A stretch of 64,000 nt of DNA from Oryzias latipes (taxonomy: Eukaryota; Chordata; Actinopteri; Beloniformes; Adrianichthyidae). The translations under genes were made by a program, and so were the position numbers. The DNA is taken from the NCBI RefSeq assembly GCF_002234675.1, contig NC_019862.2, positions 20,518,160 through 20,582,159 on the forward strand, in the 5' to 3' direction. The notes under the pieces are model-generated. The model ran no database searches, was not told where the DNA came from, and saw only the letters and a list, made by a program, of their open reading frames with translations. This document shows, one piece after another, positions 19,408 through 48,420 of this stretch. The stretch's first letter is position 1. The number at the start of each line of letters is the position of its first letter.

Positions 19408-19552
19408 AGATAAAGGTGGAAAGATTTCATGTAATCCATGGACACCAGTGAAGATCACAAATCATTGAAGAAAAAAGGTTCAGAGCACTGTTTAGTGGGG
19501 TCTAGATGACCCAACTCCCAATGTTAAAGTGCCTAGGATAGCACAAGGGTTA
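19407..19552 (-). mobile_element. TA-target MITE, copy 3 (truncated)
   Basis: The last ~145 bp of the MITE found at 4666 and elsewhere, with the intact end GGATAGCACAAGGGT followed by TA. The other end is lost at the border with the minisatellite. Confidence 0.85.
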
Positions 19553-24844: not shown

Positions 24845-24849
24845 AGAGG

Positions 24850-25437
24850 ACTGAACTCTTAACACAACTACTAGGAAACTTCTGCAGAGCCGCCAGAAAG
24901 CATTCTCCATCTGATTGCTACGGTGTGGTACTGGAGCTGCAACACTCAAGACAGGAAGGACTTGGCCCGGGTTGTGAAAACAGAACAGGTAATTGTAGGA
25001 GGACCTCTACCACAACTCGACTCAGTGTACGACAGCCAGGTCCGACGAAAGGCTGGTCGTATAGCTGCAGACCCCGCCCACCCAGAACATCAACTGTTGC
25101 ACCTCTTCCCTCTGCAAAGAGACACAGGAGCATCAGAACTCACAGCAATAGACTGAGAAGCAGCTTCTTCCCCAGAGCTGTGAAGCCCCCCCCCCAATCA
25201 CACACTTGTGTCAACACCCCCCACCCACACACACACTCACAGACAGATTTAACATAAACTACCTATCCCCCGTCATTACGCTGTTGACATGCTCTAACTG
25301 CACTTTAAATTTATGTGCAATACTCTTTTCATGTTACTGTACACTCTTTCTTATCATGTGTATTTATTGAAAAGAGCTGCTGGAAACAATTTCGTTGTGC
25401 ATTGCATAATGATAATAAAAGATTCGGATTCTGATTG
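24850..25437 (+). mobile_element. 5'-truncated L2/CR1-like LINE 3' end
   Basis: A degraded C-terminal ORF2 segment (frames containing FPRAVK after a run of basic residues) is followed by a ~280-bp untranslated tail ending ATAATAAAAGATTCGGATTC. It lies about 190 bp upstream of the gene 1 TATA box and is missing upstream of gene 2, where GATTGGTCCTATTGATCC continues directly. Confidence 0.75.
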
Positions 25438-25622
25438 GTCCTATTGATCCTAAAGAAGAATTCACTACTGCAGAGCTGATAAAACCTATGGTGCAAGTCT
25501 ATGCTGAAGTTGACTGTTTGGTACGCAGATAAGACGAAGGTGGGTGCTCAAGGGTTATATTTACCAAAGATGACAGGGGAGGTAGGGATTTTGTCATGGG
25601 TGCACATAGTACAGTAGCAGGG

Positions 25623-25630
25623 TATAAAAA
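25623..25630 (+). promoter_or_regulatory. TATA box of His-rich fetuin gene 1
   Basis: TATAAAAA lies 70 bp before the start codon, in a block almost identical to the gene 2 promoter (about 25440-25692 versus 39045-39309). A start of transcription near 25653 is expected. The word TATTTACCAAAG about 70 bp further upstream resembles a forkhead (FoxA-like) site, which would fit liver expression; that part is inference. Confidence 0.75.
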
Positions 25631-25692
25631 GGTCACCATTTCCTCCTCTGGGTATCTCTTCTGTTAGGCTGTGTGTGACAGAGTGGGCCTTG

Positions 25693-28600: not shown

Positions 28601-30093
28601 CCTTCTGCCAGAGTGTCAGCGCTGTGTCCTGACTGTCCAACTCTAATAAGTGCAGACAATGAACAGGTCCAGAAGACTTTGTCTCTTTCCCTTGACAAGT
28701 TCAACAAGGAAAGTGGGCTGAAAAATCGTTTTGACAAGCTTAAGATCACACGCGCACGCGCCGGGGTAAGGTTTCCCCCCACCTTTGTCTCTCATGTCTA
28801 AGAAATAAAAAAAAGATGAGAATGATTCATACAAGAAATGTCTCCTTAATGTCTTCTTTTGATCTCAAGATGGCCATGCAGATGTATTATATTGTGGAGT
28901 ACACCATCCAGGAGACCACCTGTGCCCACAACACAGAGGGAACTGAAAAGTGTCCACTCATGACGTGCGAGTTTGCTGTGAGTCATGAATTCTGTTTAAC
29001 AACCAATACTATGTCTTTTGACCATTCATTCACCAACTATAACACATCTATCTTGCTGTGAGAAACTAAGCTGAGTTTTCTGAAAGAAGTTTCTTCTGAA
29101 CTGACTTTTTTTTTTGCTCTTCTCTCTTTTAGCACAAGGGCTTCTGCAAGGCTTCCCTCTACAGCCTTCCAGACAATGAACAAAGCATTAATGTGGAGTG
29201 TGAGATCTATGAGTCTGAGGTAATAAAGATTGCTATTTTTAAAAATTAAAATTTGCATAAAAAAAAATCAAAACAAAACTTTAAAAAACAATAGAAATCT
29301 TAAATGACCTAATGACAATTCTTCAATTGATGTCAGTTTAATACAACAATATTCTTCATGATGTCACACTGTCCAGGCCTCTGAGGGAGAAAAGGAGGAA
29401 CATCTGTTGGGCGGAGAGACTGACCACAGCCACAATGACACGCACGGCCATGACCACTCAACATTGCCCAACCATGACCACACCTATGACCACACCAAAG
29501 TCCACCACCATCACAACAAGACCCATGAGGAAGCCGACTCCCATGACCACCACCACTCACATGACCACAAGCCAGGCAGTGCCTACAGGCACAGCCACTT
29601 CCATTCCCACGAGCACGGAGTCAACCATGATCCCGAGCACTCACACCACACCTCTGCACACAACCACACCGGCGACTTTCCCAACCACCACCATGACTAC
29701 AAGCATGCTGAGGGCGTGCACACCCATGACCACGACCACGAGCTTGCCCTGGACCACGAGCACAAGCATGCTCACCTGCATGACCATGAGCATCACCATC
29801 ATCACCACTGCCATGACCATGAGACCACGCCCCACGACACACCAGTGGGCAGCGTGAGGGTGCTAACTGATGGGCCCATGATCCTGCCTTCCTTTCCAGA
29901 CCAACCAGCAGCCGGACCCAACCCCGGCGTCGTCCTGCCTCTCAGGCCTGACCCTCAAATCCCAGGGGCCCATGAGCCTATCATCCAAGCCTTCCCACGT
30001 GGAATTTCACACGAATGCAAAGCCCCAGCAGTCAAAAACAACTTAGTAGACCAGCTCTTTGCTGAGGACCCCACCTTCAAACCCTCTGCATAA
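25693..30093 (+). CDS. Secreted fetuin-family protein with long His-rich tail, gene 1
   Basis: Seven coding exons: 25693-25896, 27052-27165, 27277-27364, 28599-28765, 28870-28977, 29133-29219, 29377-30093; all GT-AG, though donor 2 (GTCAGA) is weak. The frame stays open for 494 residues. Residues 1-17 are a signal peptide. Cystatin-like domain 1 (about 18-135) has a QPVYGQC block; CPDCP lies at 145-149; cystatin-like domain 2 runs to about 256. Residues 265-410 hold about 54 histidines in HDH/HEH words, then a Pro-rich tail with one Cys (HECKA). The exon plan, Cys pattern and CPDCP are those of fetuins; in fetuin-B this motif blocks astacin proteases. The His-rich part suggests zinc, copper or heme binding as in HRG (inference). 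An unpaired-looking Cys sits at residue 401. The first ATG of MMK was chosen; the second is equally possible. It could be called hrg-like or fetuin-B-like; orthology is unsettled. Confidence 0.93.
26095..26405 (+). mobile_element. Fragment of the GC-rich retroposon in gene 1 intron 1
   Basis: TGTTTATGTTCTTCTGAAG and the following C-rich stretch match 36597 onward in the GC-rich retroposon. CCAAGGGTCCTACATGTCT matches its tandem-repeat unit near 37690. This piece is absent from intron 1 of gene 2. Confidence 0.75.
27455..27755 (-). mobile_element. SINE-like repeat in intron 3 of gene 1
   Basis: Reverse orientation of the repeat at 9165: ACTGCGCCACCGTGC at its right end, GAACATGCAAACTCCACACAG and GGACAATGGGAGGAAGCTGG in the body. 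The same insertion exists in gene 2 (42740-43025), so it predates the duplication. Confidence 0.8.
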
Positions 30094-30144
30094 AAATCTC
30101 TTAGAAATGTCCTTTTGTGGAGAAGGCGGGGGTCAGAAACTCCT

Positions 30145-30354
30145 CAACCCTTGTGCTATCCTATGACCCCACCCTTACATTGACGTGTTGTCCCTACCAT
30201 GACAAAGGTGGATAAAGGGGAAGAGGATTTCATGTAATCCATGGACACCAGTGAAGATCACAAATCATTGAAGAAAAAGGTTGAGCGCACTGTCTAGTGG
30301 GGTCTAGATGACCCAACTCCCAATGTTAGAGTGCCTAAGATAGTTCAAGGGTTA
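30145..30354 (-). mobile_element. TA-target MITE, copy 5, in the 3' UTR of gene 1
   Basis: A ~206-bp MITE inserted about 55 bp after the stop codon. Gene 2 keeps the empty site (ACTCCTTAAAACCGTG). Here the same flanks are split, with CA (a mutated TA) on the left and TA on the right, which demonstrates a 2-bp TA target duplication. Confidence 0.9.
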
Positions 30355-30517
30355 CAACCGTGTCCTTTATATTGATCATACCAATTGACAATGAAGCACA
30401 ACGTGACAGCCTCCCATGGATATGTCTGGAACCTGTAAATTTTCCTATCTCTCAGTATAACAATTTTTCTTTTTTTTAAAGATGTTTCTTAAATGTTTTT
30501 CTGTCAAAAAAACTTTC

Positions 30518-30523
30518 ATTAAA
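30518..30523 (+). terminator. Possible poly(A) signal of gene 1 (ATTAAA)
   Basis: The AATAAA used by gene 2 at the corresponding place is changed here to AACAAT. The nearest remaining signal is ATTAAA, just before the LINE insertion. No cleavage data are available. Confidence 0.4.
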
Positions 30524-30895
30524 ATTTCCCGGGCTACAAATTGTTCAGGAAAGACAGAGAAGGTGCAAAGGGTGGTGGAGTCATGCTATACATTAAAGAT
30601 AGTATTCAGTGCAGGAAAAATCTTTGGCGTAATGCTCATGAACTAGAATGCCTAGGTATAAATATTATACTATCGCCACAAATGTCATTTACAATTATTG
30701 TGATCCATCGTCCCCCCTCATCAGATGGTGCATTTTATGAACAATTTGAAAGGCTACTCAAAAACTGCAATCTAAGTAAAGAAATAGTTATTCTGGGAGA
30801 TTTTAATATAAATTGGGAAGATACTTTGCCAGAAAAAATCTTAAGCGAGTGACTGACAAATTTGATCTTGTACAATTTACTTAAGGGCCAAACAA

Positions 30896-31329
30896 GAATT
30901 TGTCATGGTTTGAGTTTGTTTTGTCTTGGTTTTTTCTTTTGTTCTTGTTCTGTCTTGTTTGGTTCTGTTTCCTGTTTTATTTTGAAAGGGTTCCTGTCTT
31001 GTCATGTCTTGAGTTTTACTTCCTTGGTCCCCATCTGCCCTGATCATGTTCACCTGTGTCTTGTCTGCCCTGTTTGTATACAAGTCTTGTCTCTGCCTTC
31101 CTCTTGTGCTGGTCCATTAACTTCTGGTCATCTGTTTAACGTCCTCTGGTCTTAGCGTCCTTGTTCCATGTTTCTCGTCACGTCACAGTAAGTTTTCGTT
31201 TTTGTTTGGTCATCCTGCTCTGCAGCGCCTTTTGTTTGTTTAATAAACCCTCTAGTCCTGAACCCGTTGGCCTCCCGTCTCTGCGTCTGGGTTCTACCGG
31301 CTCTCGAGCCTCCCCCACATGACAGAATT
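30896..31329 (+). mobile_element. Solo LTR with 5-bp target duplication (GAATT)
   Basis: Starts TGTCATGG at 30901 and ends CACATGACA at 31324 (424 bp, TG...CA). A polyadenylation signal AATAAA lies at 31242-31247. The direct repeat GAATT sits at 30896-30900 and 31325-31329. Removing it restores the LINE endonuclease frame. These are the marks of a solo LTR left by recombination of an endogenous LTR element, probably Gypsy-type. No viral genes remain. Confidence 0.9.
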
Positions 31330-31525
31330 ACCAACTCAAGCCGCACTCGGATAGATTTCATTTTTAGCAAACGTCCAGAAAGAATTACCAAAACATACAA
31401 CATGTTAGCTGGCCTCTCTGACCATAATCTTCCCTTAGTAGTAAGAAAGCTATCAAGAAAAGATAGAATTTTTCTGCCAGAGAGAATCATTTCATTGGGA
31501 TACCAAAAAACATAAAGGGGGAGTT

Positions 31526-31726
31526 TAACACTTGTGCTATCTTAGATGATCCCACCTTTGTATTGATGTCTTATTCCTACCATGATAAAGGTGGAAAGAT
31601 TTCATGTAATCCATGGACACCCGTGAAGATCACAAATCATTGAAGAAAAAAGGTTCAGCGCACTGTCTAGTGGGTCTAGATGACCCAACTCCCAATGTTA
31701 AAGTGCCTAGTATAGGACAAGGGTTA
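31526..31726 (-). mobile_element. TA-target MITE, copy 6, nested in the LINE
   Basis: Ends ACACTTGTGCTATCTTAG and TATAGGACAAGGGT with TA on both sides. It lies inside the LINE coding region after the endonuclease part. Confidence 0.85.
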
Positions 31727-31754
31727 AGAATGCTGTTGAGCAAACTGACTGGAA

Positions 31755-31950
31755 TCAGATGTTAATAATAATAATTTATACTTTATCCCACAATGGGGAA
31801 ATTCTTCTTGACCCATCCCCTCGGGGGAGCAGTGAGCTGGAGACCAGCTGTGCTTGGGGGGCGACAGCTGGCTGGGGAGAACGGGGATCAATCCGCCAAC
31901 CCTTCGGTTGTTGGACGACCCGCTCTACCGCCTGAGCTAAACTGCCACTA
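31755..31950 (-). mobile_element. tRNA-derived SINE nested in the LINE
   Basis: On the minus strand the head has an A box (TTAGCTCAGGCGGTAGAGC) and a B box-like GGCGGATTGATCCC. The body ends in a tail with AAAGTATAAATTATTATT. This is the layout of a pol III SINE. Confidence 0.8.
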
Positions 31951-34290
31951 AAGAGAGCTAACTGTGAAAGAGATTGTAAATTATTTACGAAAACACTTGA
32001 AGAAACAATTAAAACTTTTAGTTCAAGAATAGAATTCAAACAAAATAAAAACCTGCTACCTTGGATGAACTCTGACATTCTACAATTAATGACAGAGAGG
32101 GACCGAACACTGAAAAATACCATAAAAAATAGATCTCATAGTCTAAGATATCAATTCACAACATTAAGACAAAGTGGTAAAAAGCATAAGGAAGGCCAAA
32201 GCAGATTTTTTTTCTTGACAATAATTAAGAATGCCAAAGGGGATTCTAAAAAAACTTGGAGCCAATTGAAAAAACTTGAAGGAAGGGACACAAGACACAA
32301 AAAAAGTTTAGAAATAAAGGTAAGTGGACATATTACCAATGATCCAGTCACAATAGCAGATGTCTTCAATAGATTTTTCATTGAATTGGTTTCCTTAATT
32401 GCCACTCATTTCAAATCTAATAATTTGCATGTGTGTCCTACAAATGCGACAGAGCCTATATTTAGCTTAATTACTGTCACCGAAACTGAAGTCGCACAAT
32501 CAGGTCACTTAAGTCAAGCAGAACAAAATACATATTTGGTATTGATACTTTTGTGCTCAAAGAACTCAGCTCAACCTTGACATCTCCCTTAACCATTATT
32601 CTCAATCAATCCATCTCTGAATCACTATTTCCAAGTGCATGGAAATCATCAGCGGTGATTCCTCTCTCCAAAAACTGAGACTCCATGTTGCCTTCAAATT
32701 ACAGACCAATCAGTATCACACCCACAGTGTCCAATATCGCAGAAAAACGTATTGCCCAACAAATTATTTCACACCCCAACAATTCATCTTTTTCTCTTTA
32801 TCCAATGCAGTTTGGTTTCAGATCTCAGCACTCAACAGAAACAGCTAACTGCTTTTTCATAGAAAACATAAAATCTCTATTAGATAAAGGTGGGACATTT
32901 GGGGCTGTGTTTCTTGACCTGAAAAAAGCTTTTGACACAATAAGTCATAAAAAACTGCTGACTAAACTAACCAAATTCAATTTCTCCTTGAAAACTTGAA
33001 AATAAAATAGATAGGATCATATTTATCAAATAGATCTCAGTCAGTCAGGATAAATCATCATCATTCCCCTCCTCTCCATATCTCTACAGGTGTTCAGCAA
33101 GGTTTCATTCTAGGGTCTATACTTTTCTCTCTACATTAATGACCTCCCTTCTATTTGTTCAAATGTCTTCATTCAGATGTATGCTGATGATACTGTCATT
33201 TATGCACATGGCAAAAACACATCTGAGGTGGCAGAGAATCTCACTAAAACAATGGGACATGTACCAGAATGGTTGGAACAGTCAAGTTTAAGTCTCAATG
33301 TAAACAAACCAGTTGCAATGTGCTTTTCCAAAACAAACCGTAAAAATATTCTGTCTGATATTTTGTTGCAGGAGCGAAAATTTGAATATCTCGGCATTGT
33401 AATTGATACGACATTAAATTTTAAATCGCAGATCCAAAAAGTATGTAATCGTGTTAAGTTTAACATGTCTAATTTTAGATTTATTAGGGCATATTTGTCA
33501 CTGCAAGCTGCTACAATGTTCATGAATGCTATGATATTATCCCACATGACATACTGTCTCACTACCTGGTCGCAGGCAAACAAATCAGCATTAAAACCTC
33601 TGGGGTCACTTTACAAACAAACAATTAAAATACTGGGTAAAGAACCATTAAGACATCATCACTGTGACATTTTACAAAAACACAAACTGTTAAGCTGGGA
33701 GAACATCATTAAGTATACAAAACTGTGCCTGTTTTACAAACTCATCAAAGGTCTGTCATCCCCTCCACTCAGTCAGTTTGTTAAAATAAGATAATTCTCC
33801 CAAAGAGTGACAAGAGGGTCGGTTCATCAAGACTGTATAGTTCCTCTGCGGAGAAGTGTGTTCAGCCAGAGCGCCTTCTCCGTAACAGCAGCACAAGAGT
33901 GGAACTCTGTTCCTCACATTATTAGAGACCTCACCACATACACTCTGTTTAAAAAGCACCTAAAAAAACTGGTTCATATCACAATAAACATTTCTCCATT
34001 GAACTATATTAATGCCTGCCCCTCCTTGTCCGATCTGTCACCTCTGTCTTTTATATTTGTTTATATGTTTCTCACTGTGTGCATGTTTTTATGTATTTTA
34101 AATGATTGTTCATAGTACATGTATATTATCTATTAATATATTTAATTGATGCTTTGAGGTTTTTAGGTTAACGATTTTAACACCTGTCCGGGACTACAGA
34201 TGGAAAATAGCCTTTGGGCTAATTCTGGCGCATTGCAGCCATGCTTTTAATGTGCACTGTCCCTGTTAAATAAATGAATGAATACATTAA

Positions 34291-34690
34291 TTAATTAATT
34301 AGCGAATGGCTAATTTTTGGGATGAAAATATTTAAGAAACTTATTGAATAACAAGGATGAATCAGGGTATCTTGTATTGAATCAGTTAAACGACTAGTGC
34401 CTGACATCAGCAGCTTTGTGAACTCAAAGGAGACTTTCCGCTTTGTCATTTCTAAATCACTAATGGCTTCATTAGTGATTCATTAGTCATCAAGTCCGAA
34501 CTAGGTCCAAATGTCAGAATTTGAAGGGGAAAAAAAATACTTTCAATTATTTTTGACTCATCTAGACTCTTGTAAAAAAAAAAAGTGGAAATAAACTTTT
34601 GCACAAAAAATAGGATTCCTTACCACAAGCATTTTAAAGGCCATTTTATCACTTGACACATCTATCACAGTCCATTATGTCCTTAGAACT
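34291..34690. other. Duplicated non-coding flank between LINE and foldback element
   Basis: The stretch at 34410-34610 (GTCATTTCTAAATCACTAATGG, AACTAGGTCCAAATGTCAGAAT) matches 45205-45420 downstream of gene 2. It belongs to the segmental duplication and holds no gene. Confidence 0.7.
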
Positions 34691-35489
34691 TGTTACGGGC
34701 ACAGCCCTCTGCTTTGCTCTCATCTTGTTGTTTGTCACTTCAGTTGATTTCCTGATGATGTTCACCTGGGACTGCTGCTTCCTCAGCTGTGACTGGCCGC
34801 CTGCGGGTCATGTGGTGCTCCTCTACCAGGAAGCCGGAGTCTATTAAGCACACCTGGGAGCTGGGCCCGGCCGAGAGAGTCTGGTGAACTGTTTCTGGCT
34901 GACTCTCACTTTGATCCTGACGCTCTTTGGCAAACAAACTGCTGCATGATTCTGACTAGGCTGTTTTCCTCAGGTACGTGGTGGGAGGTTGTGATCAGGT
35001 AAGTCTGGGGCCCCATACATTTTCACATGCAGGCTGAACATTGTTAGACACACGAGGTAAGGGGTTGGTGCCATTTCTTGTTATGTTTTTATTAGACTAG
35101 GTAGGTAGTCTTTTGTTGTTCCTTTTGATTTATAGGTTGAGGTGCGGAGCTAGGCCTGGTTTTGTTATATTGTGTTTGTTTATTTGGCACGACCCAAACG
35201 TCATGACCTCCCCCACAGGTAATGGTTTGCAGCAGGTTTGTTTGCCAAAGAGAGTCAGGATCAAAGTGAGAGTCAGCCAGAAACAGTTCACCAGACTCTC
35301 TCGGCCGGGCCCAGCTCCCAGGTGTGCTTAATAGACTCCGGCTTCCTGGTAGAGGAGCACCACATGACCCGCAGGCGGCCAGTCACAGCTGAGGAAGCAG
35401 CAGTCCCAGGTGAACATCATCAGGAAATCAACTGAAGTGACAAACAACAAGATGAGAGCAAAGCAGAGGGCTGTGCCCGTAACAGAACT
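34686..35489. mobile_element. Foldback-like element with ~255-bp inverted arms
   Basis: The arms 34691-34945 and 35229-35484 are reverse complements with few mismatches, starting TGTTACGGGCACAG and ending CTGTGCCCGTAACA. The ~283-bp loop is unrelated. The 5-bp direct repeat GAACT flanks it (34686-34690, 35485-35489). Apparent 60-codon frames occur in mirror image in the two arms and are not genes. The superfamily is not clear: a foldback DNA element, or two LTRs joined head to head. Confidence 0.85.
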
Positions 35490-35689
35490 GAAAAAAGCAG
35501 ATTTTGCCAGCATTACAACTAATGCAATAATAACAATTTTACAAGCTATTATTTTTGCATCCAGGCCTGTGATGAAAAATTTGAAGTCATACTACATGAG
35601 AACTAGCTTAAAAATAAGCACATTTTTCAATTGCACTAGAAACGGCAATAGATATACATACATATATAAAAGATACTGCGCATGATCCT

Positions 35690-36011
35690 CAAGCTCCCAG
35701 GCCTCTGGTAGAGGACCTAAGCTCGGGTAAGAAACACCCCGTGGTGGAGGAGAGGGACATAATTATAAAAGGCCAAAAAACCCAATTACCACAGACACCA
35801 CTGTCACCTTCACTTTCTATGGTTTCTCCAGTTCTTCTCCGAGTCCCTGGTATTTCTCCAGTTTCCTTAAGTTCCTTCTTCCAGATGTTTCAGACACTTT
35901 TTACTGCCACATCCACCACAACGGGTTTACTGTGTTCTTTATCCACCACTACAATGTCTGGTTCGTTCACCATTACCATACTGTCGGTCTGTATCTGGAA
36001 GTCCCACAGGA

Positions 36012-36016
<5 letters not shown>
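35690..36016 (-). mobile_element. R2/R4-like LINE C-terminal fragment (upstream part)
   Basis: On the minus strand the frame contains ILWDFQIQTD and PDIVVVDKEHSKPVVVDVA, a conserved C-terminal block of fish R2/R4 (Dong/Rex6)-type non-LTR retrotransposons. Its continuation (YAEYELETPRSKWETLPKV) lies at 37989-38092, separated by the GC-rich retroposon. Confidence 0.7.
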
Positions 36017-36052
<36 letters not shown>

Positions 36053-37988
36053 TTGTCCTGTCCAACAGCTGGACAGTCAGATGAGAGCTGAGGGCCTCTT
36101 GGGTTGGACATATTTTACTTTAACAAGAGGGGTTATTAATCTTCAGACAAACCAAAGGTATGTCTGAATAAACCCCTTTTGTAATTGAGGCCAAACTTTA
36201 TTAATTTCAAACATGTCTGAAAATCTTTGGTGTTGGACCGGACGGAAAAGGAAAGAGGGGAAGAAGAGAGAGGGACGTTAGAGAGAGGGGGGGTAGGGGG
36301 TGATAATAGGAGGGGAAGGGGGATAAGACCATGAAGCAGCATAAAGCAACAAGTTTACTGGTTGTTAATCATTATGGTAAGGTTTAAATGTAAAAAAAAA
36401 ACAAAAAAAAGGGCGGAGCCTGTCCACACACACACTCAAATGTTATAAACACACCTGTTAGTTGCAAAAATGTCCACCTGTCGACATGTACACAAAACAG
36501 ATAGTGTTCACACGCATACTTATGCCTTAAAACCAACTAGTGTGAAATATTTCAGTCATTCAGTCTGTTGAGCTAACACCTGTGCTCAGGTGAGTGTTTA
36601 TGTTCTTCTAAAATGGATGGTGGAACGTGAAAAGAAGGAGGGAGAGTGCCCAGCCATCCCCACCCCAAGACCCCCACCGCACCAGCAGCGGCAGCCGGAA
36701 TCCCCCCAACGCCACATGGGAACTGGCAGGGAACAACCGCCGCCCGGGCGACCAAGCCCGCCACCCAGGCCAGGGCCAGCAGGGCCGCCGCAAGGCCCCC
36801 AGAGCCAGAGAGCAGGGAGGCACGGAGGGAAAGAGGGCGCCGCCCCAGCCCAACCAGGAGAGCAGCCCCCCCGCCGCGCCGGGAGAACCCAACGCAGGGC
36901 CCCACCGGAGAAGGACGCCCACAGCCCCAGACGAGCACCCCACCACCACCCAGGAGTTCCGGTCATCCCCCCGCCCCAACCCCAGGTACGAGCCAGGACC
37001 CCCCAAGGGAGACCCACTCCGCACTCCAGGCAGCCATCCGCCCGGCCCACGGTTGGTCCAGGGAGGAGCGAGGCAGGGGCCCGCCGTCCCCGCCCAGGAG
37101 GGGGGAACCCCGGGGAAAAAAGAGGGCCCACAAGGGGTGTTGTAAGTATGGCCCGACCAGGCTCGGCCACAGTTGGAAATTTGGCGGGGCCCAGCACTCA
37201 GGAGCAAGGACTATAACCCACCCCCCAGGGACACGAACACCCCCGGCTCAGATGTAATGTGAACCCCCCCACCGCGCGGAGAGAGCACCGCCGGGCCCAG
37301 GAAGCCGGTACCCCGGGGACACAGCCGCCGTTGCAAAGGGGCCCGTACCCCCCACCAGGGAAGAGGCAGGGGACAAATGGTCCTAGGTCCCACCTTCCTT
37401 GCAAAATGTGTGTGCGTGTATGTGTGTTTGAGAGAGTGTGTGTGTGCATGTGTGTGTGTTTATGTTGGGATGTATATATTGAGGGGGGAGGGGTGTGTGT
37501 ACTAAGGGGGGTGCAGTTAAAATTGGCAGGTAGGGCACTAAGGGGACATCTCCTGATTACTTACAGTGACGTCCCCTCACCCTCCCCACCAAGGGGCCCT
37601 AAATGTCTAATGTGCGGTTAAAATTGGCGGGTAGGGTGCTAGGAGGACATCCGCTGCTTGCTGGCAGTGATGTCCAAGCACCCCCCCTACCAAGGGCCCT
37701 ACATGTCTAAGGTGCAAATAAAACCGAAAGAGGGGGGGCCCACTCCATACGGCAACCACAGGAGGGGGGCCACTGCCTAGTAAACCCCCCCCCCAAGGCT
37801 CATCGCAGGCTAAGCCCCCCACCCCCTCACCCTATTATGAGGTTATATGAGGAAGGGGGTAAGTTGGGGACAGATGATAGACTGAGCCCCGGTGGTCAAA
37901 CAGCCCCCCCCCCCCCCCCCAGCAAGGGGGCCAGGCCCACCCAGCCCCGGGGCCCCACCCCCGGAGGCGCAGATCCCACAGGATCTTT
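36002..37988 (-). mobile_element. GC-rich poly(A) retroposon, copy 1, 15-bp TSD
   Basis: The direct repeat TCCCACAGGATCTTT stands at 36002-36016 and 37974-37988. A ~36-nt T run follows the left copy, meaning a poly(A) tail on the minus strand. The ~1.96 kb between is very C-rich on the + strand and contains a ~105-bp tandem repeat (two units, about 37513-37720). It therefore moved by target-primed reverse transcription. Long open frames on both strands are a result of GC bias; I do not recognise any protein. Confidence 0.8.
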
Positions 37989-38092
37989 GCTCTCATTCTC
38001 TGCCACCTTCGGAAGTGTTTCCCATTTTGACCTTGGGGTTTCCAGTTCATATTCTGCATACATGGTCCTGTATATTATTCCAGACTCTTTGG
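37989..38092 (-). mobile_element. R2/R4-like LINE fragment at the duplication junction
   Basis: Minus-strand coding continuation of the fragment at 35690 (YAEYELETPRSKWETLPKV). It breaks off at TCCAGACTCTTTGG and is joined directly to the sequence that starts unit 2. Confidence 0.75.
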
Positions 38093-39239
38093 AGAGCAAC
38101 CTCCAAAATGACCCATGTACCTAAACACACAAAAAATACTACATGTAGAATCGCAACTGTCACTAGTTTCTTGACACACACAATAACAAAAGAAAAGTTG
38201 AATTTAGAGACTAAAATGCTAAAAAGTCAACACTGTTGTGCAATACAGCATGTATTACTTGTTTCCATGTAAGTGGTAAAATAAACTTTGTGTCTAATAA
38301 CCGATTTTAGTTAAAAACCTTTATGATTTCCCCTTGGTGATCCCTGCTGTAATTCATTAGAAGTTGCATATGGTTTTAAGTTTTGGCTGAACTGAGAGGA
38401 CTGATTGACTTGACTTGTTACGCAACTGTAGTTGCAACAGCTGCACTTAAAACCATTGATTTTTAGGCAGGTGGTCCTATGGGTTATTTATTTAGTGGCA
38501 GACAAAGGTCAAATGTTTCACTGCTGAGCAGCTACAGGGGAGCAACTCTTTCCTCTCACTGCAGATGCTGCACGCAAACTCAAAGTTCAAGGAGGCAGTG
38601 AAGCTAAACGTGCATCTGCTCCCACTTCTATTTCTGCAGTCTGGAAAGTTAGTGTTAAAGCTGGGGAAAAAACACTTCATAGTGCATAACATTTCTGCCT
38701 GCAGGAACTGGAAGTCATTTTCACCCACCCACTTCTTTTACCATTGGATATTTGGTGTGTTGCAGACACAAAACACAGTCATCCCTGTTGGATGTAATCA
38801 TAGTGGATTTATTTAACTACTCATCCAACGAGGTTTACCGAGAAAAATTGTTGCATAAGGGCAACAAGTTTTAAAGCAACACAAATAAAGGTGATAGTTG
38901 TAAACATTTTCCAATCTGCATCCATTCCAAAAAGTTTTGCTTTTAAGACTGTAGAAAAATTTTGTGTCTCTTTTTAAAAGATCTTTTCAAGCAAAACTTT
39001 GTCCTTGACTTAACTCTTCTGGTGGCAGGATTAAATCTTCCGTCCCCCTGATTGGTCCTATTGATCCTAAAGAAGCATTCACTACTGCAGAGCTGATAAA
39101 GCCTATGGTGCAAGTCTATGAAGAAGTTGATTGGTTGGTATGGAGATAGGACGAAGATGGGTGCTCAAGGGTTATATTTACCAAAGATGACAGGGGAGGT
39201 GGGGATTTTGTCATGGGTGCACATAGTACAGTAGCAGGG

Positions 39240-39247
39240 TATAAAAG
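39240..39247 (+). promoter_or_regulatory. TATA box of His-rich fetuin gene 2
   Basis: TATAAAAG lies 70 bp before the start codon, in the same context as gene 1. The upstream region is uninterrupted here; gene 1 has a MITE and a LINE fragment starting about 190 bp upstream. Confidence 0.75.
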
Positions 39248-39309
39248 GGTCACCATTTCCTCCTCTGGGTATCTCTTCTGTTAGGCTGTGTGTGACAGAG
39301 TGGGCCTTG

Positions 39310-42300
39310 ATGATGAAGATCTGCATCTTGGGGTTGCTGGTGCTGGGGTGCGTGCACGGTGCACCCGTGAAAGAAGACCTGAAGCCGCAGTCATGTGACG
39401 ATCCACACGCCGTAAAAGCTGCTCATGTGGCTCTGACGAAGATCAACATGGAGCGGAACGATGGCTACATCTTCAGCCTGCACCGCCTGTCCAACGTTCA
39501 CCATTCCATGCACGTAAGCCGTTTTTCATGATCTACACTTTAATGGCCAAGACTTCTACTTTAGCATTGTGCTAAAGGTCTGAAAAGCCTTTTGATGTTG
39601 CAATTCAGATAATTAGAAAATTTTGAAAACAATTAAACTAATTAAACATGGAGCCTTCAGAGCCACATGAACATGCAACATGGAGCAAAAGTATAAAAAA
39701 ATGGGACCTTTAAATGTAAGTTAAAATATTTAAAACTCTAGTTATTAAAATACTCATAAATCTAATATTTATCAAAGTTATCCTAGAAGCAAATAACGAA
39801 GACAGTCAGTTTGCATAATACATAAAACCTGGAATAAATTATGAGATGCTGCTGAACCTAAATCTGATCACATTACTAAATGTATTTCATATAAGGGCTT
39901 TTAGTTAAATGTAATTTATGAGTGAACTGGATTGAAAAGATTTACAGATGTGCAAAGAATTTATGGCAGGATGATGGTTGTCATGGAAACATTGGTGCCT
40001 TTAATGAAAAGATTCCGCCTTCATTCAATTCCTGCTATTCTGAACATTTGAGATTATGTTAAAGTAGGTGTAGTTTTAAAACAGACAAAGTTTTCTTAAA
40101 GTAAGTATTTATTCCTGTCTTTGTGAAAAACAAGAAATCAATTAGTCAATCAATACTTTAGGAACTCCTTTTAAACGATCAAAATTAAAATAAAGTACTT
40201 TTAAATGTCAGAAATTAAAGCTAATTTAAAAAGATCTCAAATCCTGCAATGCTTTCTCTAATCTATTGAAGAAAATCCTTTAATCTGCCTAAATAATCAA
40301 TTAAATGATCATTTAAAAAGGAACAGTGTAATTTAAAATAAACTCTCAACTCAAGATTTATTGTCATAGAAACGTGGAAAAAAAGAATTCACCTTTCAAA
40401 TTGTTAAAAATAATATTTGCCTTTCATGCCGTACTCTGCAAGTTTGCAACATACCATTTAATTCAAGACTCCACTTAATTTAGCATAATCTTGAATAAAA
40501 ATTAATTACAAATAATTAATTGTTTTTGGAAATAAATTCAGGTATGAAGGGTTAAACATGAGTTTAACTCAAATATGGTATTAAAAATTCAGAAAATTAA
40601 AATGGATTTTTTTCTTCATAGAACCTCAAAGCCAAAGCTGGCACTTTTTTGAGAAAACAAAAAGAATCATTCCATTGACTGCAAATACAGATGAACGAAG
40701 AGAGTGTGACATCACCCATAGAAAATGCATTACCTCTGGCTTCAGCGAAATAAAGTGAATTCTGTCTCAAATTTTTCGCATTTAGGAACCAGACGACATT
40801 GATTGGTCTATGCTGGTCTGAGTCTCGTGTCTAGGGCAACAACTGTCGTCAATCATGAGTAATTTTCTTCAAAGTCCACCCCCCTCTTTCCGTCTCAGGA
40901 GAATCTGTCAATCTAACTTTCTAACTAATGGGCACCAGATGCTTTTACTGAGGCATCTGATTGGTCAGTTTATAACTTGAATAACTTAAACTTAAAGAAA
41001 AAATATTGTGAAAAATAATTAGAAGATGTTAAGGAAAAAAGTAGCAGAGCAAGAATGGTTATGTAAGGGTTAATGGGCGACAAAGTGTGCGTTATTACTT
41101 TTTAACGCACGCCGTGGAAGCCTGAGCGGAGGACGGTTCAGGCGACGTGCGTTAAAACGTAATAACGCACACTACGAAGGCCATTTACCCCCTTATACCA
41201 TTGTCACTTACAAAAGCAATACATATTAACCAGTTTTTAGTCCTTAATTCTTGTTTTTTTTCCGATTTGGATCGCTTTTCTCACAAAAAGCGGACTATTT
41301 GTTACGTGATGCGCATCACGTAACAAATAGTCCGCGTCGGGCCACCGCTGCAGTCAAGATTCGGTGATATATATATGATGATCTTTCCGATGGGTTGAAT
41401 AAAGCATCAGTTCAGAGACAAAGTTCACCTCTTACCGCTTGTTTTTGTCCAAATGATGAAGCAAAAGGTTGTTTTAAAGAAACCAGTGCAGTGATACAAA
41501 ACATTTAAGCTAAGTGACCGGAACTTCTTTTTTCACCGTGCGGTTATCAGGTTTTAACACACACACAGCAGCCAATCAGAATCAAGTATTCACCCGGACC
41601 ACGGTATAATCTGATAATTAGAATGACTGAGTAATAGCTGCTAAAAGTCTGTAGGATTTCGGCTCCTGGGAGCCAGCAGGTACTTCTTATGTGGAACACA
41701 AGGGGGGAGGGGGCAAGATGTTCAGCGATATACTGTCTATGAATTTTTTAAGTTCACATTTATTGTCATCATGTTTGGTAACTATGCTCACGAGGATTTC
41801 ACTGTTGAGCATGTGGCCCTTTAGTCAATATGACCCTTTGGAAAAGTAAATATTGCAACAAAGTTTCTTGAAAACAAGAAATCAATCAGTCAATCAATAC
41901 TTTAGGAGCACCTTTTAAACAATCAGACCTAAAATGAAGTACTTTTAAATGTCAGAAATTAAAGCTAATTTAAAACTATCCCAAATTCTCCAATACTTTC
42001 ACTCATCCATTGAAGAAAATCCTTTAATCTGCCTAAATGATCAATTAAATGATCATTTAAAGTGGAAAAAAATGGGCAATGTGTCATCCGTGGAGCCAGC
42101 TTCCTATTTGGAACGCAAGGTGGGAGGGGGCAAGATGTTCAGTGATATACTGTCAATGGATTTTTTTAAGCTCTCCTTTTTTGTCATCATGTTTGGTAAC
42201 TGTGCTCACGAGGATTTTCCCCGTTGAGCATGTGGCCCTTCAGTTAATATGATCCTTTGGAAAAATAAAAATATTGCAACACAGTCTTGACTTCCTTTAA

Positions 42301-44902
42301 AAAATATAATACAGTGAATTTCTCTGTTTGTGTTGCAGGGAGAGAACGGTGTGGTTTATTACCTGACTATGGATGTTGTGGAGACAAACTGCAGCGTTCT
42401 TAGCAGGAAGGACTGGAAGCACTGTGAGGCTCGTCCAACCAGCGACCAGCCGGTCAGAAAACACACACAATCTGCAGACACAATGTTAAGGACGTAGACT
42501 CTCAAACTACATTTAAAACATATTTAATAGGGCTTAACTGATGACAATTACATGTTTCTTTAGGTTTATGGACAATGCAAAGCAGCCATCTTCATCAATA
42601 AGGTGCACAGAGTGGATCGTCTCTACAAATACGACTGTGTTATCAAACCAGGTAAAAAAAAAAAAAAAGGTTCCTAAAAATCTTTTTTAATTGCGTAGAA
42701 TTTCTTCTTAGTCATTTATCAATCTTAAATAACATTTAATGCTGTTAATCTTCTAAACCGGTTTTGTCCCTTTCGGGGTCAGGTCGCCAGTCTGTCGCTG
42801 GGCCACAAATCACGCACATTTATGCCTAGGAACAATTTAGAGTAACTATTTTACCTATGAAGCATGTTTTTGGACAATGGGAGGAAGCTGGAGTCCCCCA
42901 GAGAAAACCCAGGCATGCACGAGGAGAACATGCAAACTCCACACAGAAAGGTCCCCAATTGGGATTCTGTTTCAGGTCCCCCAGCCGGGATTTCTTGCTG
43001 TGAGGCAAGAGCGTTTGCGCCACCGAGCGAGACTTGGTTCCCCTATGACTCAAAGTTTTAAAAAGTGTATCAAGATGTATTTGGGACACACATAAACAAA
43101 TTAAAAAACTTCAAAATTGCAGTAGACTGCCTAAAACAGATTTTCAAGAATGTTTTGCAAACTACAAAAATATAAGGGGTATTGAACCCTATGATGAAGA
43201 GTTATGTTTTTAGGATGCCAAAGTGTTACCTTAAAAATGGGTTATTAAAAATGGAACTTTGTCTGATCTAATCAATATTTTAAAGCAATTGTCATATTCT
43301 TTAATTCTGAAAGGGAGAAATGGTTCACATCAACTCTGTGAGGTATTTAATAAAACTACAACATTTGAGAGGTCTTGTGTCAACAATGGTGTATATGTTT
43401 TTCCAGTTCCTTCTGCCAGAGTGTCAGCGCTGTGTCCTGACTGTCCAACTTTAATAAGCCCAGACAATGAACAGGTCCAGAAGACTTTGTCTCTTTCCCT
43501 TGACAAGTTCAACAAGGAAAGTGGGCTGAAAAATCGTTTTGACAAGCTTAAGATCACACGCGCACGCGCCGGGGTAAGTTTTCCCACCCCTTTTTCTTCT
43601 CTCATGTCTAAGAAATAAAGAAAAGATGAGAATGATTCATACAAGAAATGTCTCCTTAATGTCTTCTTTTGATCTCAAGATGGCCATGCAGATGTATTAT
43701 ATTGTGGAGTACACCATCCAGGAGACCACCTGTGCCCACAACACAGAGGGAACTGAAAAGTGCCCACTCATGACGTGCGAGTTTGCTGTGAGTCATGAAT
43801 TTTGTTTAACAACCAATACTATGTCTTTTGACCATTCATTCACCAATTATAACACATCTATCTTGCTGTGAGCAACTAAGCTGAGTTTTCTGAAAGAAGT
43901 TTCTTCTGAACTGACTATTTTTTTTGCTCTTCTCTCTTTTAGCACAAGGGCTTCTGCAAGGCTTCCCTATACAGCCTTCCAGACAATGAGCAAAGCATTA
44001 ATGTGGAGTGTGAGATCTATGAGCCTGAGGTAATAAAGATTGCTACTTTTAAAAATTAAAATTTGCATTAAAAAAATCAAAACAAAACTTTAAAAAACAA
44101 TAGAAATCTTACATGACCTAATGACAATTCTTCAATTGATGTCAGTTTAATACAACAATATTCTTCATGATGTCACACTGTCCAGGCCTCTGAGAGAGAA
44201 AAGAAGGCACATCTGTTGGGCGGAGAGACTGACCACAGCCACAATGACACGCACGGCCATGACCACTCTACATTGCCCGACCATGACCACGCCCACGACC
44301 ACACCAAAGTCCACCACCATCACAACAAGACCCATGAGGAAGCCGACTCCCACGACCACCACCACTCACATGACCACAAACCAGGCAGTGCCTACAGGCA
44401 CAGCCACGACCATTCCCACGAGCACGGAGTCAACCATGATCACGAGCACTCACACCACACCTCTGCACATAACCACACCGGCGACTTTCCCAACCACCAC
44501 CATGACTACAAGCATGCTGAGGGCGTGCACACCCATGACCATGACCACGAGCTCGCCCTGGACCACGAGCACAAGCATGCTCACCTGCATGACCATGAGC
44601 ATCACCATCATCACCACGGCCATGGCCATGAGACCACGCCCCACGACACACCAGTGGGCAGCGTGAGGGTGCTAACTGATGGGCCCATGATCCTGCCTTC
44701 CTTTCCAGACCAACCAGCAGCCGGACCCCACCCTGGCGTCACCCTGCCTCTCAGGCCTGACCCTCAAATCCCAGGGGCCCATGAGCCTATCATCCAAGCC
44801 TTCCCACGTGGAATTTCACACGAATGCAAAGCCCCAGAAGTAAAAAACAACTTAGTAGACCAGCTCTTTGCTGAGGACCCCACCTTCAAACCCTCTGCAT
44901 AA
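39310..44902 (+). CDS. Secreted fetuin-family protein with long His-rich tail, gene 2
   Basis: Coding exons 39310-39513, 42339-42452, 42564-42651, 43407-43573, 43680-43787, 43943-44029, 44186-44902, with the same phases and sizes as gene 1, giving 494 residues. Domains match gene 1: signal peptide 1-17, two cystatin-like domains, CPDCP at 145-149, His-rich residues about 265-410 (about 56 His), one C-terminal Cys. By eye, exon 1 differs from gene 1 at 9 of 204 positions, whereas exons 2-6 differ at 8 of 564. Exon 7 has about 13 amino-acid changes, among them Gly instead of the gene 1 Cys at residue 401. Intron 1 is 2.8 kb against 1.2 kb in gene 1 and contains a partly repeated segment. The frame, splice sites and an AATAAA signal are all intact, so it should be functional. 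It is probably a plasma protein with metal-binding and protease-inhibitor roles, by family analogy. Confidence 0.93.
41055..41625. mobile_element. Putative DNA-transposon-derived insertion with inverted repeats
   Basis: This block is absent from gene 1. It contains a 27-nt inverted repeat (41085-41111 and 41146-41172, one mismatch, around GTGCGTTATTAC), a 46-bp perfect palindrome (41290-41335), and a right part with CAGCCAATCAGAATCAAGTA, a motif I associate with common fish DNA transposons. The outer ends are not clear. Confidence 0.5.
41290..41335. repeat. Perfect 46-bp palindrome
   Basis: GCGGACTATTTGTTACGTG... reads identically on both strands with no spacer, centred between 41312 and 41313 (ATGC|GCAT). 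It lies in intron 1 of gene 2. Confidence 0.97.
42740..43025 (-). mobile_element. SINE-like repeat in intron 3 of gene 2
   Basis: Orthologous to the repeat at 27455. Its right end, GCGCCACCG, is followed directly by AGCGAGACTTGG, whereas gene 1 has about 490 bp more, so one of the two introns has an indel. Confidence 0.8.
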
Positions 44903-45059
44903 AAATCTCTTAGAAATATCCTTTTGTGGAGAAGGCGGGGGTTAGAAACTCCTTAAAACCGTGTCATTTATATTCATCATACTGATTGACAATGAAACAC
45001 AAGCTGACAGCCTCCCGTGCATATGTCTGGAACCTGTAAATTTTCCCATTTCTTAGTTT

Positions 45060-45065
45060 AATAAA
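45060..45065 (+). terminator. Poly(A) signal of gene 2 (AATAAA)
   Basis: AATAAA lies about 160 bp after the stop codon, followed by a T-rich region. A second AATAAA lies about 45 bp further on. The equivalent first signal is mutated in gene 1. Confidence 0.7.
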
Positions 45066-45439
45066 GTTTTAAAAAAAGATGTTTCTTAAATGTTTTTCTG
45101 TTGAAATAAACTCATTAAAAATTTCAAAAACAACCCTACACTGGTGGTTTATTTAATAAAAAAAAAACATCTGACATTTTCATGTCTTTGTGAATTAATC
45201 ATTTTCTTTTTGAACTCTAAGGAGATTTTCTGCTTTGTCATCGCTAAATCACTAATGCTTCATTGGATGCCTTTTTGTGAATAAATCAAGGGTTGCTGAT
45301 GTTCAACATTTTAAGTCAGAACTAGGTCCAAATGTCAGAATAAAAAAAAAACTACTTTCAAATATTTTTGACTCATTAAGATTACATCTTGTAAAAAAAG
45401 CACAAATTATAGGCAGTTAATTAGGATTATTAAATAATC

Positions 45440-47507
45440 TTAATAAATTAAATAAATTATTATTATTTTTTTTTTTTAAACTTGTTCTGTCCAACAGCTG
45501 AGCAAACAGATTAATGGTAAATGGCGTATACTTATATAGCGCCTTTCTTCCTACAAGGACAAAGCGCTTTACAGTCACGGACCCATTCACCCAGTCACAC
45601 ACACATTCACACACTGGTGGTCGCTCCGCTGCCAAACACAGGCGCCTGCCTACCACCAGAGGCAAGGTGGGGTTCGGTGTCTTGCCCAAGGACGCTTCGA
45701 CTCATGGGTGTGCAAGGCGGGAATCGAACCTGCAACCTTATGATCATGGGACGACCGCCCTACCGCTGCACCACGGCCGCCCCTTTAGATTAGAGCTGAA
45801 GGCTTTTTGTGTTGGACAGGTTTTACTATCACAAAAAGAGGTTATATAGCTTCAAGAAACTAGAGTGTAAATTTGTATAAACCCCTTTTTATCGTATTAT
45901 TTTTTATTTATTTGTTACATTTAGTGTGTGGGGGGAGGGAGAGGGGAAGAATGTGAGGGGAGGGTGGAAGAGAGTAAAAGGAAGAAAGGTGAAAAGGTGG
46001 GGGATACAAGCACTCATTTGAATAAGTTATTATTTTAAGCTGTAACAATTATACCAGATCTGCTGGAAAGACGAATGTTACATCAAAGGTTAAAATCTGA
46101 CACTAAGATGAGCGAAAAAAATCTGTCCATCAATACACTGTGGGTAAGGAGGAGGGATGAAGCAGACAGGGAGCAGTGTGGCAGTGTGCACGTGCACGTA
46201 GGGGTGGAGATACATGCATGCTGCCAACGTGAACCGTGTGTTCATAAGGGGAGCCAGATCCTACCCAGCCAGACCAGCCAGACCAGCCAGACCAGGAGAG
46301 GGGAGGAGAGCCCCCCAGGCCAGAAGCCCCCCCAGCATCCGGACCCAGGCAGCCCGGGAGGGGAGGAGGAGGGGACCGCCCACCCCACCAGCCAGGCACA
46401 GAGAGGGCCCCCCTACAGGGGCCCCCCCAATGCCCAGAGGCACAAGCGAACCCAGTGTCCGGCCCCCAGGCCACAAGACAGAAGCGCTTAGCCGTACCAG
46501 GTGGCAGCCATGGGGGCCACCGGGCGCCGGACACCGAGACAAAGGCCAGGGACGAAGCCAGGGCCCCCGGAACCCATGAGCCGGCCACCCCCCGACCGGC
46601 GCCCCGTCTCCGCAAGCCAGCCCAGGAATGGGACCTAAGCAACCCAGGGATCGCCACGCACCCACAGCCACCCCCCATAACCCTACAACCCTACACACTA
46701 CAACCCCCCCCGCCATAATATCTGAGCCCCCCTCCCCAACCCTCTCAGTGCCCTCCCCTCTCTGTGATGGGGAAGGAAAGCCCCAGAGGGTCCCAGCGAG
46801 CCAGCCCCCAGGTCCGTCCTACCCATGCACTCACGCACACATACTCACAATCATCTGGTTACCCCCCCCACCCCCGCCGCCACGCAGTAACCCCCCCCCC
46901 CAGCCGGCCGACCCCCAGCGCCGTATGCCCGACCATTCCCGCAGCCGACAGGATACCCATAAGCCCGGCCGCCCTGACAGGACCAGGCGGGTGAAGACCG
47001 GCCGCCCCTCCCCGACCCCACCCATGTATGGAGGTGTGGGAGTGCTGTGTGTGTGCTGCAGGTAAAATAGGAGGTCCCCAGTGTGGGGGGCTCCACCGCT
47101 GCCAAGCCGCAAAGCCCCCCACTCCGGGGTCCCTCTGTGAGTGGTGTGTATTTGCTGTGTGTGTGCTGCTAGCATGCAGTGTGTGTCTCTACAGAGGAAG
47201 TTAAAATTGTGGGGGGGGGCCAGCAAAAGGTGAGCACGGATGTTTCACCGTGCCCCCCTCCACCAGACCCTCTCCACAAGGCCCTAGATGAATCAGAGTG
47301 TCTAATATGCAAGTAAAAAGCAGGGAGGAGGGCGGGTGCCAATGAGAACCCAGAGAGGGGCATCCCCAGTGAGCCCCGCCAGCATACCCCTCCCATCCAG
47401 TTCCCGGAGCCCTATGTGCCTGTGTGCAATATTTGTTTGGGTGAGAGCGGGGAGGAGCGGGCGGATGGGCACAATTTTTTTTTTTTAAATGGAAATAATA
47501 ATTGACT
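45440..47507 (-). mobile_element. GC-rich poly(A) retroposon, copy 2
   Basis: Starts, like copy 1, with a T run followed by AACTTGTTCTGTCCAACAGC. It has C-rich blocks and one unit of the tandem-repeat region (CACAAGGCCCTAGATG near 47275), then ends near another T run. The right flank is the same R2/R4-like LINE sequence as at copy 1. A SINE is nested at 45514-45786. No clean target duplication is visible at this copy. Confidence 0.7.
45508..45792 (-). mobile_element. tRNA-derived SINE, 6-bp TSD (AGATTA)
   Basis: On the minus strand the head carries an A box (GTGGTGCAGCGGTAGGGC) and a perfect B box (GGTTCGATTCC). The tail ends in GCGCTATATAAGTATACGCC. The direct repeat AGATTA is at 45508-45513 and 45787-45792. 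Copy 1 of the host retroposon lacks the insertion. A second copy of this SINE is at 48440. Confidence 0.88.
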
Positions 47508-48420
47508 TTGGGGTTTCCAGCTCATATTCTGCATACGTGTTCCTGTATATCATTCCAGACACTTGGTTGTGGCACTCTATGCATGCCTTCCCTGCCAGCT
47601 TTTCCTGAGCTGCCAGGATGAGTGCTTCAGTGATGTCCTGTAGGCCAGCCCTCTCTAGCTACTGGTAGTACTTCTTGATATCAGTCACTTCAGTTATGGT
47701 CTGGTGGTACATCCCATGCAGGGGATCGTCCTCCCATGAGGATCTGTTCTCCAGAACCGCGTCCTCTGCTCTCCATTGCCACTTTCAGGTTGTGCATCAC
47801 TTAACCGTTGTAACTGGTGTCAGGGTTTTCTGGTGTTCATTCTCGACATGATCTTGTCTCTCAGGACAGTTGCTGCCTCGCTCAGTGTAACATTAGTTAT
47901 TGGGGCTGTGGTTCCCAAGTTGGAGTTGGGTGTGTGGTATAGCCTCCTCTCTGACCTGCTGTTCTGGCAACACCGTGGTGTTGCATTTGAGTTGTACCGC
48001 TTCAGTCTCAAGTTGTGATAAGCGTTGCCGTTTGTGGATGTTGGAACGTTGAGCTATTAGTTGTTTGGCAGTTAACCTTGATTGTGAGTTTCGAAACAGT
48101 CATTCACTCCACATTCTCAGGGTGTAACCTCTCTGAGGAGGATTACATGCGTAGTAGCATAGTAGCGTAGTAGCAACAGAACCTTGTTCTCTCTACTAGT
48201 CCATTTTCGTCTTGTTCCAGTTGCCCACTTTCAGTCAGGGTGCTCTGGTTCCCCATCACCTGATGCAGACGTCTGAGCCGCCATGACATGTGGTTTATTG
48301 TCTCTGATGGGTTTTGAGGTAGGCAGTAGCGTTAAGGGTTCTTGCCCAAGGGCCCGCACTGGATTATGTTAATAGTTTGCCATTGTTATGGTAATTCCCC
48401 CATTAACAGTTCATTCTGCA
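47508..48420 (-). mobile_element. R2/R4-like LINE fragment
   Basis: The minus-strand sequence continues the YAEYELETP block seen at 37989 (CATATTCTGCATACGTG region) and runs on for about 0.9 kb with frameshifts. The part from 47820 contains a frame with PHTQLQLG-like words. A dead copy; the family call rests on the conserved C-terminal block. Confidence 0.55.

What the first reader, a model, noticed from the sequence alone, without database searches (positions are those of the whole stretch)
38093..44902. Gene 2 is a mosaic: older 5' part, recently exchanged exons 2-7
Against gene 1, exon 1 of gene 2 differs at 9 of 204 positions, but exons 2-6 differ at only 8 of 564 (counted by eye). In intron 1 of gene 2, a diverged version of the gene 1 segment 26575-27000 (40120-41865) is followed at 41868 by an almost identical second version which runs into exon 2. 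This is what an unequal exchange or gene conversion would leave if its left breakpoint lay in the word GAAAACAAG. The two genes would then share protein sequence but keep their own promoters and N-termini.
Basis: partly seen in the sequence, partly recalled or inferred. Interest (0 to 1): 0.75.

Follow-up and report, generated by a model that had tools for sequence, protein, structure and literature searches.

The report
Patchwork twin fetuin-B genes in medaka
Two neighbouring copies of a fish blood-protein gene (fetuin-B) are old duplicates, and most of the second copy was later overwritten with sequence from the first, leaving a visible repair scar in its first intron; it is a clear example of a well-known process, gene conversion.

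Summary
Confirmed and extended. Genes 1 and 2 are tandem fetuin-B genes, almost certainly of medaka: the gene 2 protein is identical to a record named O. latipes fetuin-B. They lie in a tandem duplication whose ends I located (23995-38089 and 38093-47564). Unexchanged aligned parts differ at 111 of 937 sites (11.9%). dS is 0.17 in exon 1 and 0.055 in exons 2-7. Change-point analysis puts sharp changes at the intron-1 junction and at a SINE in gene 1's 3' UTR; between them 81 of 3070 sites differ. Native, diverged sequence on both sides excludes a simple unequal crossover, so this is ectopic gene conversion, gene 1 to gene 2. The double segment is real: version b sides with gene 1 at 52 of 57 variable sites. 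Its junction has almost no homology, so I favour a homologous copy finished by end joining; that step is inferred. Correction: the 5' part is not uniformly old. A single-copy block upstream of each promoter differs at only 5 of 491 sites and the core promoter at 1 of 155, so 'own promoters' is not supported. The process is ordinary; the scar is unusually legible.

The parts
23995..38089 (+). copy 1 of the tandem duplication: upstream block, fetuin-B gene 1, intergenic stretch
   Evidence: homology starts abruptly at 23995/38093; far end 38027-38089 matches 47502-47564 at 57 of 63; weaker hits in the same order at 34414/45206, 36028/45457, 36058/45766
38093..47564 (+). copy 2 of the tandem duplication, with gene 2
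   Evidence: as above
25693..30093 (+). gene 1, fetuin-B, exons 25693-25896, 27052-27165, 27277-27364, 28599-28765, 28870-28977, 29133-29219, 29377-30093; 494 aa
   Evidence: intact frame and GT/AG sites at every intron; Pfam Cystatin, two stretches; solved fetuin-B chains are the five best PDB matches
39310..44902 (+). gene 2, fetuin-B, exons 39310-39513, 42339-42452, 42564-42651, 43407-43573, 43680-43787, 43943-44029, 44186-44902; 494 aa
   Evidence: protein identical to P0001, named fetuin-B [Oryzias latipes]
38093..38583 (+). upstream near-identical block U (gene 1 counterpart 23995-24486), candidate second conversion tract
   Evidence: 5 of 491 mismatches; found at only these two places in the 734-Mb genome
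39048..39647 (+). promoter, exon 1 and start of intron 1: patchy, 35 of 595 mismatches (gene 1 counterpart 25431-26031)
   Evidence: 11 of 154 at 25431-25584, 1 of 155 at 25585-25739, 8 of 121 at 25776-25896
39953..40323 (+). unexchanged intron 1 sequence; its end is the left part of diverged version a
   Evidence: 42 of 370 mismatches to 26410-26780
40324..41682 (+). 1.36-kb insertion within version a; its second half is a dispersed repeat
   Evidence: insert positions about 727-1297 match other chromosomes at 85-90% among the 40 scored of 6369 candidates
41683..41867 (+). right part of diverged version a (gene 1 counterpart 26813 to about 27006)
   Evidence: 18 of 174 mismatches
41864..41878 (+). 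junction: gene 1 coordinate about 27006-27012 jumps back to about 26583; 1 nt shared strictly (3 if one A of a run is allowed to slip)
   Evidence: read by eye, gene 1 standing in for the lost left parent
41868..44956 (+). exchanged tract (version b, exons 2-7, start of the 3' UTR)
   Evidence: 81 of 3070 mismatches; change points at 26979 and 30134 in gene 1 coordinates
27749..28226 (+). 478 bp of gene 1 intron 3 absent from gene 2, with an old repeat copy
   Evidence: query 165-444 matches other places at 75-85%
30147..30352 (+). SINE-like element in gene 1's 3' UTR, absent from gene 2; coincides with the right end of the tract
   Evidence: dispersed, best other copies 93-95% (40 scored of 2199 candidates); uninterrupted site in gene 2
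44957..45123 (+). native gene 2 sequence after the tract
   Evidence: 24 of 170 mismatches to 30352-30527

Best explanation
A segment of about 14 kb with one fetuin-B gene was duplicated in tandem. The copies diverged to about 12% at sites free to change. Later, gene 1 served as template for a repair of gene 2 that overwrote everything from the end of intron 1 to the start of the 3' UTR (exons 2-7). Shown: the patchwork, both boundaries, native flanks on both sides, and the direction (gene 2 carries the rearranged junction; gene 1 keeps the simple order). Inferred: a break lay in old gene 2 just upstream of exon 2; the exon 2 side invaded gene 1, was extended leftward about 0.43 kb past the position of the break, and was joined to the other broken end by end joining, leaving the double segment. 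On the right the tract stops at a SINE present only in gene 1, where homology is interrupted. A separate, later or repeated exchange made the upstream block U, and perhaps the first 0.67 kb of the main tract.
For: dS 0.172 in exon 1 (like unexchanged noncoding DNA, 11.9%) against 0.055 in exons 2-7. Noncoding columns: b 19/955, c 30/834, U 5/491 against baseline 111/937, Fisher p 1e-18, 6e-11, 1e-15. Noncoding change-point fit (4 segments by BIC; 5 segments nearly tie, 1434.8 v 1433.5) puts its three changes 35, 10 and 14 aligned columns from large insertions or junctions; three random points do so in 0.1% of draws. Version b: g1=b at 52 of 57 variable sites, b=a at 2, g1=a at 2 (both at the junction itself), all different 1; gene 1-like from the first diagnostic site 26600. 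Native flank after the tract and at the end of the duplication. No third close copy: 2 places for exon 2 DNA; the protein search finds these two genes plus two distant relatives. Cell-culture precedent for copy-then-end-join with microhomology: PMC5104497 (abstract, passages).
Against: The left parent at the junction is lost, so the shared letters there are judged against gene 1 only. An independent small tandem duplication followed by ordinary conversion stopping at the junction leaves the same footprint. The tract is not of one age: 5 of 672 (26584-27255) against 76 of 2398 to the right (permutation p 0.0045), so more than one event is likely. Exon 7 alone (24/717) is not lower than exon 1 by a convincing margin (Fisher exon 1 v exons 2-7 p 0.16). 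Segmentation ran on blocks that BLAST could align, and block edges are also the sites of the large insertions, so the coincidence is less independent than 0.1% suggests. At 7 of 16 amino-acid differences in exons 2-7 (91, 255, 260, 263, 293, 331, 342) gene 2 has the usual outgroup residue and gene 1 does not, which says nothing for the direction and shows gene 1 changing faster since.
Confidence: 0.8

Rival explanations
1. Two steps: a 0.43-kb tandem duplication arose inside intron 1 of old gene 2, and later ordinary in-register conversion from gene 1 replaced the downstream copy and exons 2-7, stopping at the junction because homology ends there.
For: Tract ends here coincide with breaks in homology; several exchanges clearly happened (block U).
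Against: Needs two events where one suffices; no trace of a-type sites at the start of b (first diagnostic site 26600 is already gene 1-like).
Confidence: 0.3
2. Simple unequal crossover between misaligned tandem genes made a chimeric gene 2.
For: The left junction is out of register.
Against: A crossover would carry gene 1's downstream flank along and leave a further copy; gene 2 has its own downstream flank (24/170, 6/63) and no third close copy is found. Breakpoint sequences are not homologous.
Confidence: 0.04
3. No exchange: exons 2-7 and their introns are just more constrained.
For: Proteins of this family are conserved across fish.
Against: Introns and silent sites show the same drop, and version a against version b of the very same intron segment differs fivefold or more.
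Confidence: 0.02
4. Assembly artefact: gene 1 sequence pasted into gene 2.
For: Near-identical tandem genes are a known trouble spot; I could see no reads.
Against: The tract still differs from gene 1 at 81 of 3070 sites plus a 478-bp and a 206-bp length difference, so it is a separate locus; the deposited O. latipes protein has gene 2's exon 1 with gene 2's exons 2-7, though it may derive from the same assembly.
Confidence: 0.04

Closest known systems
Ectopic (interlocus) gene conversion between tandem duplicates (established knowledge)
   Same: patch of low divergence including silent sites and introns, native flanks on both sides, both genes intact
   Different: left end is a non-homologous junction with a 0.43-kb duplication instead of an in-register homologous end
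Non-canonical termination of homologous recombination / long-tract conversion ended by end joining (PMC5104497, abstract and passages; the 2000 Mol Cell Biol report on coupled homologous and nonhomologous repair is recalled, seen only as a reference)
   Same: homologous on one side, end-joined with little or no microhomology on the other, partial duplication
   Different: reporter assays in cultured mammalian cells; here a fixed, old germline product in a fish, mechanism inferred from the scar
Fetuin-B (fetub), cystatin superfamily
   Same: signal peptide by eye, two cystatin stretches, CPDCP in the linker, seven coding exons, His-rich tail as in other fish records
   Different: two tandem copies that are mosaics of each other

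Membership tests
Tandem segmental duplication | homologous units side by side with definable ends in both copies | tested here: met
   ends at 23995/38093 and 38089/47564; collinear remnants between
Ectopic gene conversion | localised low divergence at silent and noncoding sites against an older background | tested here: met
Ectopic gene conversion | recipient keeps its own sequence on both sides of the tract | tested here: met
   version a on the left, block d and the duplication end on the right
Ectopic gene conversion | gene tree of the tract conflicts with that of the flanks in related species | not testable with these tools
   no DNA of other Oryzias held; proteins only, 18 differing residues
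Unequal crossover | flank switched with the tract, or a further or missing copy | tested here: not met
Homologous copy ended by end joining | one end homologous, other end non-homologous with 0 to few nt shared | tested here: inconclusive
   junction fits, but a prior tandem duplication would look the same
Fetuin-B | two cystatin domains and closest solved relatives fetuin-B | tested here: met
   Pfam Cystatin 78.4 bits, two stretches; five fetuin-B chains at E 1e-42 to 3e-39
Fetuin-B | inhibits astacin-type metalloproteinases | not testable with these tools
   needs an assay; CPDCP linker present in both translations (its role is recalled)

The most novel reading that the evidence does not exclude
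Tandem fetuin-B genes in spiny-rayed fish repeatedly re-make each other by ectopic exchange, with different tracts in each lineage, and the medaka pair preserves a germline event in which a homologous copy was finished by end joining, with tract ends set by insertions that only one copy carries. In 3 of the 4 other same-species protein pairs kept (Periophthalmus, Scortum, Oreochromis; Amphilophus did not) exon 1 and parts of exon 7 are nearly identical while the middle exons differ strongly, the opposite of medaka.
Probability: 0.3. Interest if true: 0.5.

Novelty: new member of a known kind. Interest (0 to 1): 0.3.

Why it matters
Gene trees of fetuin-B, a plasma and egg-coat protease regulator (function recalled), would mislead in fish if whole proteins are used, since different exons have different histories. 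The two intron versions side by side in one gene also make a rare dated pair: one shows the age of the duplication, the other the age of the exchange. It does not change what is known of gene conversion.

Tried and rejected
Rejected: that block U is a mobile element (only two places in the genome); that the whole 5' part is old; that GAAAACAAG is a homologous recombination site (single occurrence); unequal crossover. Rfam: no match in the window at gathering thresholds. Global MAFFT alignment of the whole loci misplaced version a, so block-wise alignments were used instead.

Literature: five searches on fetuin-B in medaka or teleosts, and on conversion limits in tandem genes listed no paper, by title and abstract start, on exchange between medaka fetuin-B genes; two searches returned none at all. 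Only open-licence PMC text was searched. One paper was opened: PMC5104497, abstract and passages. Searches were seen as listings.

Dropped rows: of six same-species protein pairs picked by eye from the 120 listed hits, Poecilia formosa and Takifugu were set aside as probably one gene each; the four others are gene predictions, at least two with odd splices, and chromosomal adjacency was not checked. Only 120 of 225 hits were listed.

Full report
What it is. The window lies in a 734-Mb, 25-contig genome at C4:20518160-20582159. Both genes have seven coding exons with GT/AG introns and encode 494 residues with two Pfam cystatin stretches; the five best solved structures by sequence are fetuin-B chains. 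Exon 2 DNA occurs at two places in the genome; a protein search finds only these two genes plus two distant relatives, one at 52914-55557 of the window.

The observation. Counts by eye were exact: 9/204 in exon 1, 8/564 in exons 2-6; exon 7 has 24/717. Silent sites carry the point: dS 0.172 in exon 1, 0.044 in exons 2-6, 0.064 in exon 7. The double segment in intron 1 is present, with the diverged version interrupted by a 1.36-kb insertion that holds a dispersed repeat.

The frame around it. Homology between the two loci begins abruptly at 23995/38093. At the far end, 38027-38089, just left of copy 2, matches 47502-47564 at 57 of 63, and three weaker matches lie between in the same order. So this is a tandem duplication of about 14.1 kb, the second copy now 9.5 kb. 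The collinear matches inside the intergenic stretch are short and partly low in complexity; the end match is the strongest of them.

Divergence map (mismatches over aligned sites): U 5/491; between U and promoter 13/111; promoter to start of intron 1 35/595; a short stretch after it 8/49; intron 1 left 42/370; version a right 18/174; version b to the 478-bp gap 20/1157; from there to the SINE 61/1913; after the SINE 24/170; duplication end 6/63. Background pooled from six blocks: 111/937. Change-point fits on noncoding columns gave four segments with changes at 24452, 26979 and 30134; with all columns a fifth segment splits off at 25982. The fit used pre-aligned blocks, so unalignable sequence between blocks is left out; this understates the background.

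Finer patches. Within the promoter block, 25431-25584 has 11/154, 25585-25739 1/155, 25693-25775 1/83, 25776-25896 8/121, 25897-25975 2/79, then 12/51. The quiet stretch covers the TATA-like site, 5' UTR and signal peptide, so constraint and a short conversion patch cannot be told apart. Block U is noncoding as far as I can see, occurs only twice in the genome and differs at 1.0%; either conversion or extreme constraint would be needed, and I favour conversion. The first 672 columns of the main tract have 5 mismatches against 76 of 2398 after (permutation p 0.0045), so the tract is probably a composite of at least two exchanges.

Mechanism. Version b agrees with gene 1 at 52 of 57 variable sites of the segment, with a at 2, and is followed without a break by exons 2-7. 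Gene 1 shows the simple order flank-segment-exon 2, and the same flank precedes version a in gene 2 (26410-26780 / 39953-40323), so gene 2 is the altered copy. At the junction the sequence runs from the counterpart of about 27006-27012 back to about 26583. The parents share one letter there strictly, three if a run of A is allowed to slip (by eye; the true left parent is gone). Homologous crossing over does not act on that; end joining does. A repair that copies from a homologous template and ends by end joining is described in mammalian cells (PMC5104497, abstract and passages: microhomology or added nucleotides at every such join studied). On the right the tract ends within about 40 bp of a SINE in gene 1 that gene 2 lacks. 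The SINE's nearest copies among those listed are 93-95% identical, so it is probably older than the exchange, and a stop at that heterology is plausible but not shown.

Against this reading, a two-step history (small tandem duplication, then in-register conversion) fits the same letters. The age is not well fixed: another O. latipes record, P0002, shares gene 1's residues at 255, 260, 263, 264 and 293, unlike most outgroups, but gene 2's at 91, 288, 331, 342, 401, 403, 438 and 474. It looks like a gene 1 relative from another strain, which would put the exon 6-7 exchange before the strains parted; this is a single predicted protein. So 'recently' holds only relative to the duplication.

Wider look. 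Six same-species fetuin-B pairs were picked from the 120 listed homologues; two look like one gene each and were set aside. In Periophthalmus exon 1 differs at 1/69, exons 4-6 at 31/123, exon 7 at 7/233; in Scortum exon 1 at 0/72 and the last part of exon 7 at 0/74 but exon 6 to mid exon 7 at 50/205; in Oreochromis exon 1 at 4/72, exons 2-6 at 58/185, exon 7 at 25/230; Amphilophus shows no such contrast in exon 1 (19/72, 90/177, 50/230). These are protein predictions and could be chimeric gene models, so this is a lead.

Verdict.

Noticed in passing
52914-55557: Third fetuin/cystatin-type gene on the + strand, 38-47% identical to gene 1 over four exon-sized stretches.
   Followed up: partly
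24382 and 38479: The O. latipes record P0002 begins MGYLFS, which block U can encode at both places, and has no exon 1 sequence: a misprediction or a strain copy without exon 1.
   Followed up: partly
15953-18696: Tandem repeat of 1.37 kb, two units 98.1% identical, each with inner 0.43-kb repeats about 81% alike.
   Followed up: no
4664-4875, 13208-13416, 19404-19558, 24633-24846, 30146-30357, 31525-31732: Copies of one SINE-like dispersed element in the window, two of them beside or within gene 1 and none in gene 2.
   Followed up: partly
48731-51664: Two adjoining long open frames that look like a LINE endonuclease and reverse transcriptase (by eye), just downstream of the duplication.
   Followed up: no
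25693-30093: Gene 1's protein departs from the usual outgroup residue at 7 of 16 differing sites in exons 2-7 where gene 2 keeps it, so gene 1 seems to be changing faster since the exchange.
   Followed up: partly
26100-26405 and 36594-36876: A 72% identical stretch shared by intron 1 of gene 1 and the region upstream of gene 2, probably an old repeat.
   Followed up: no
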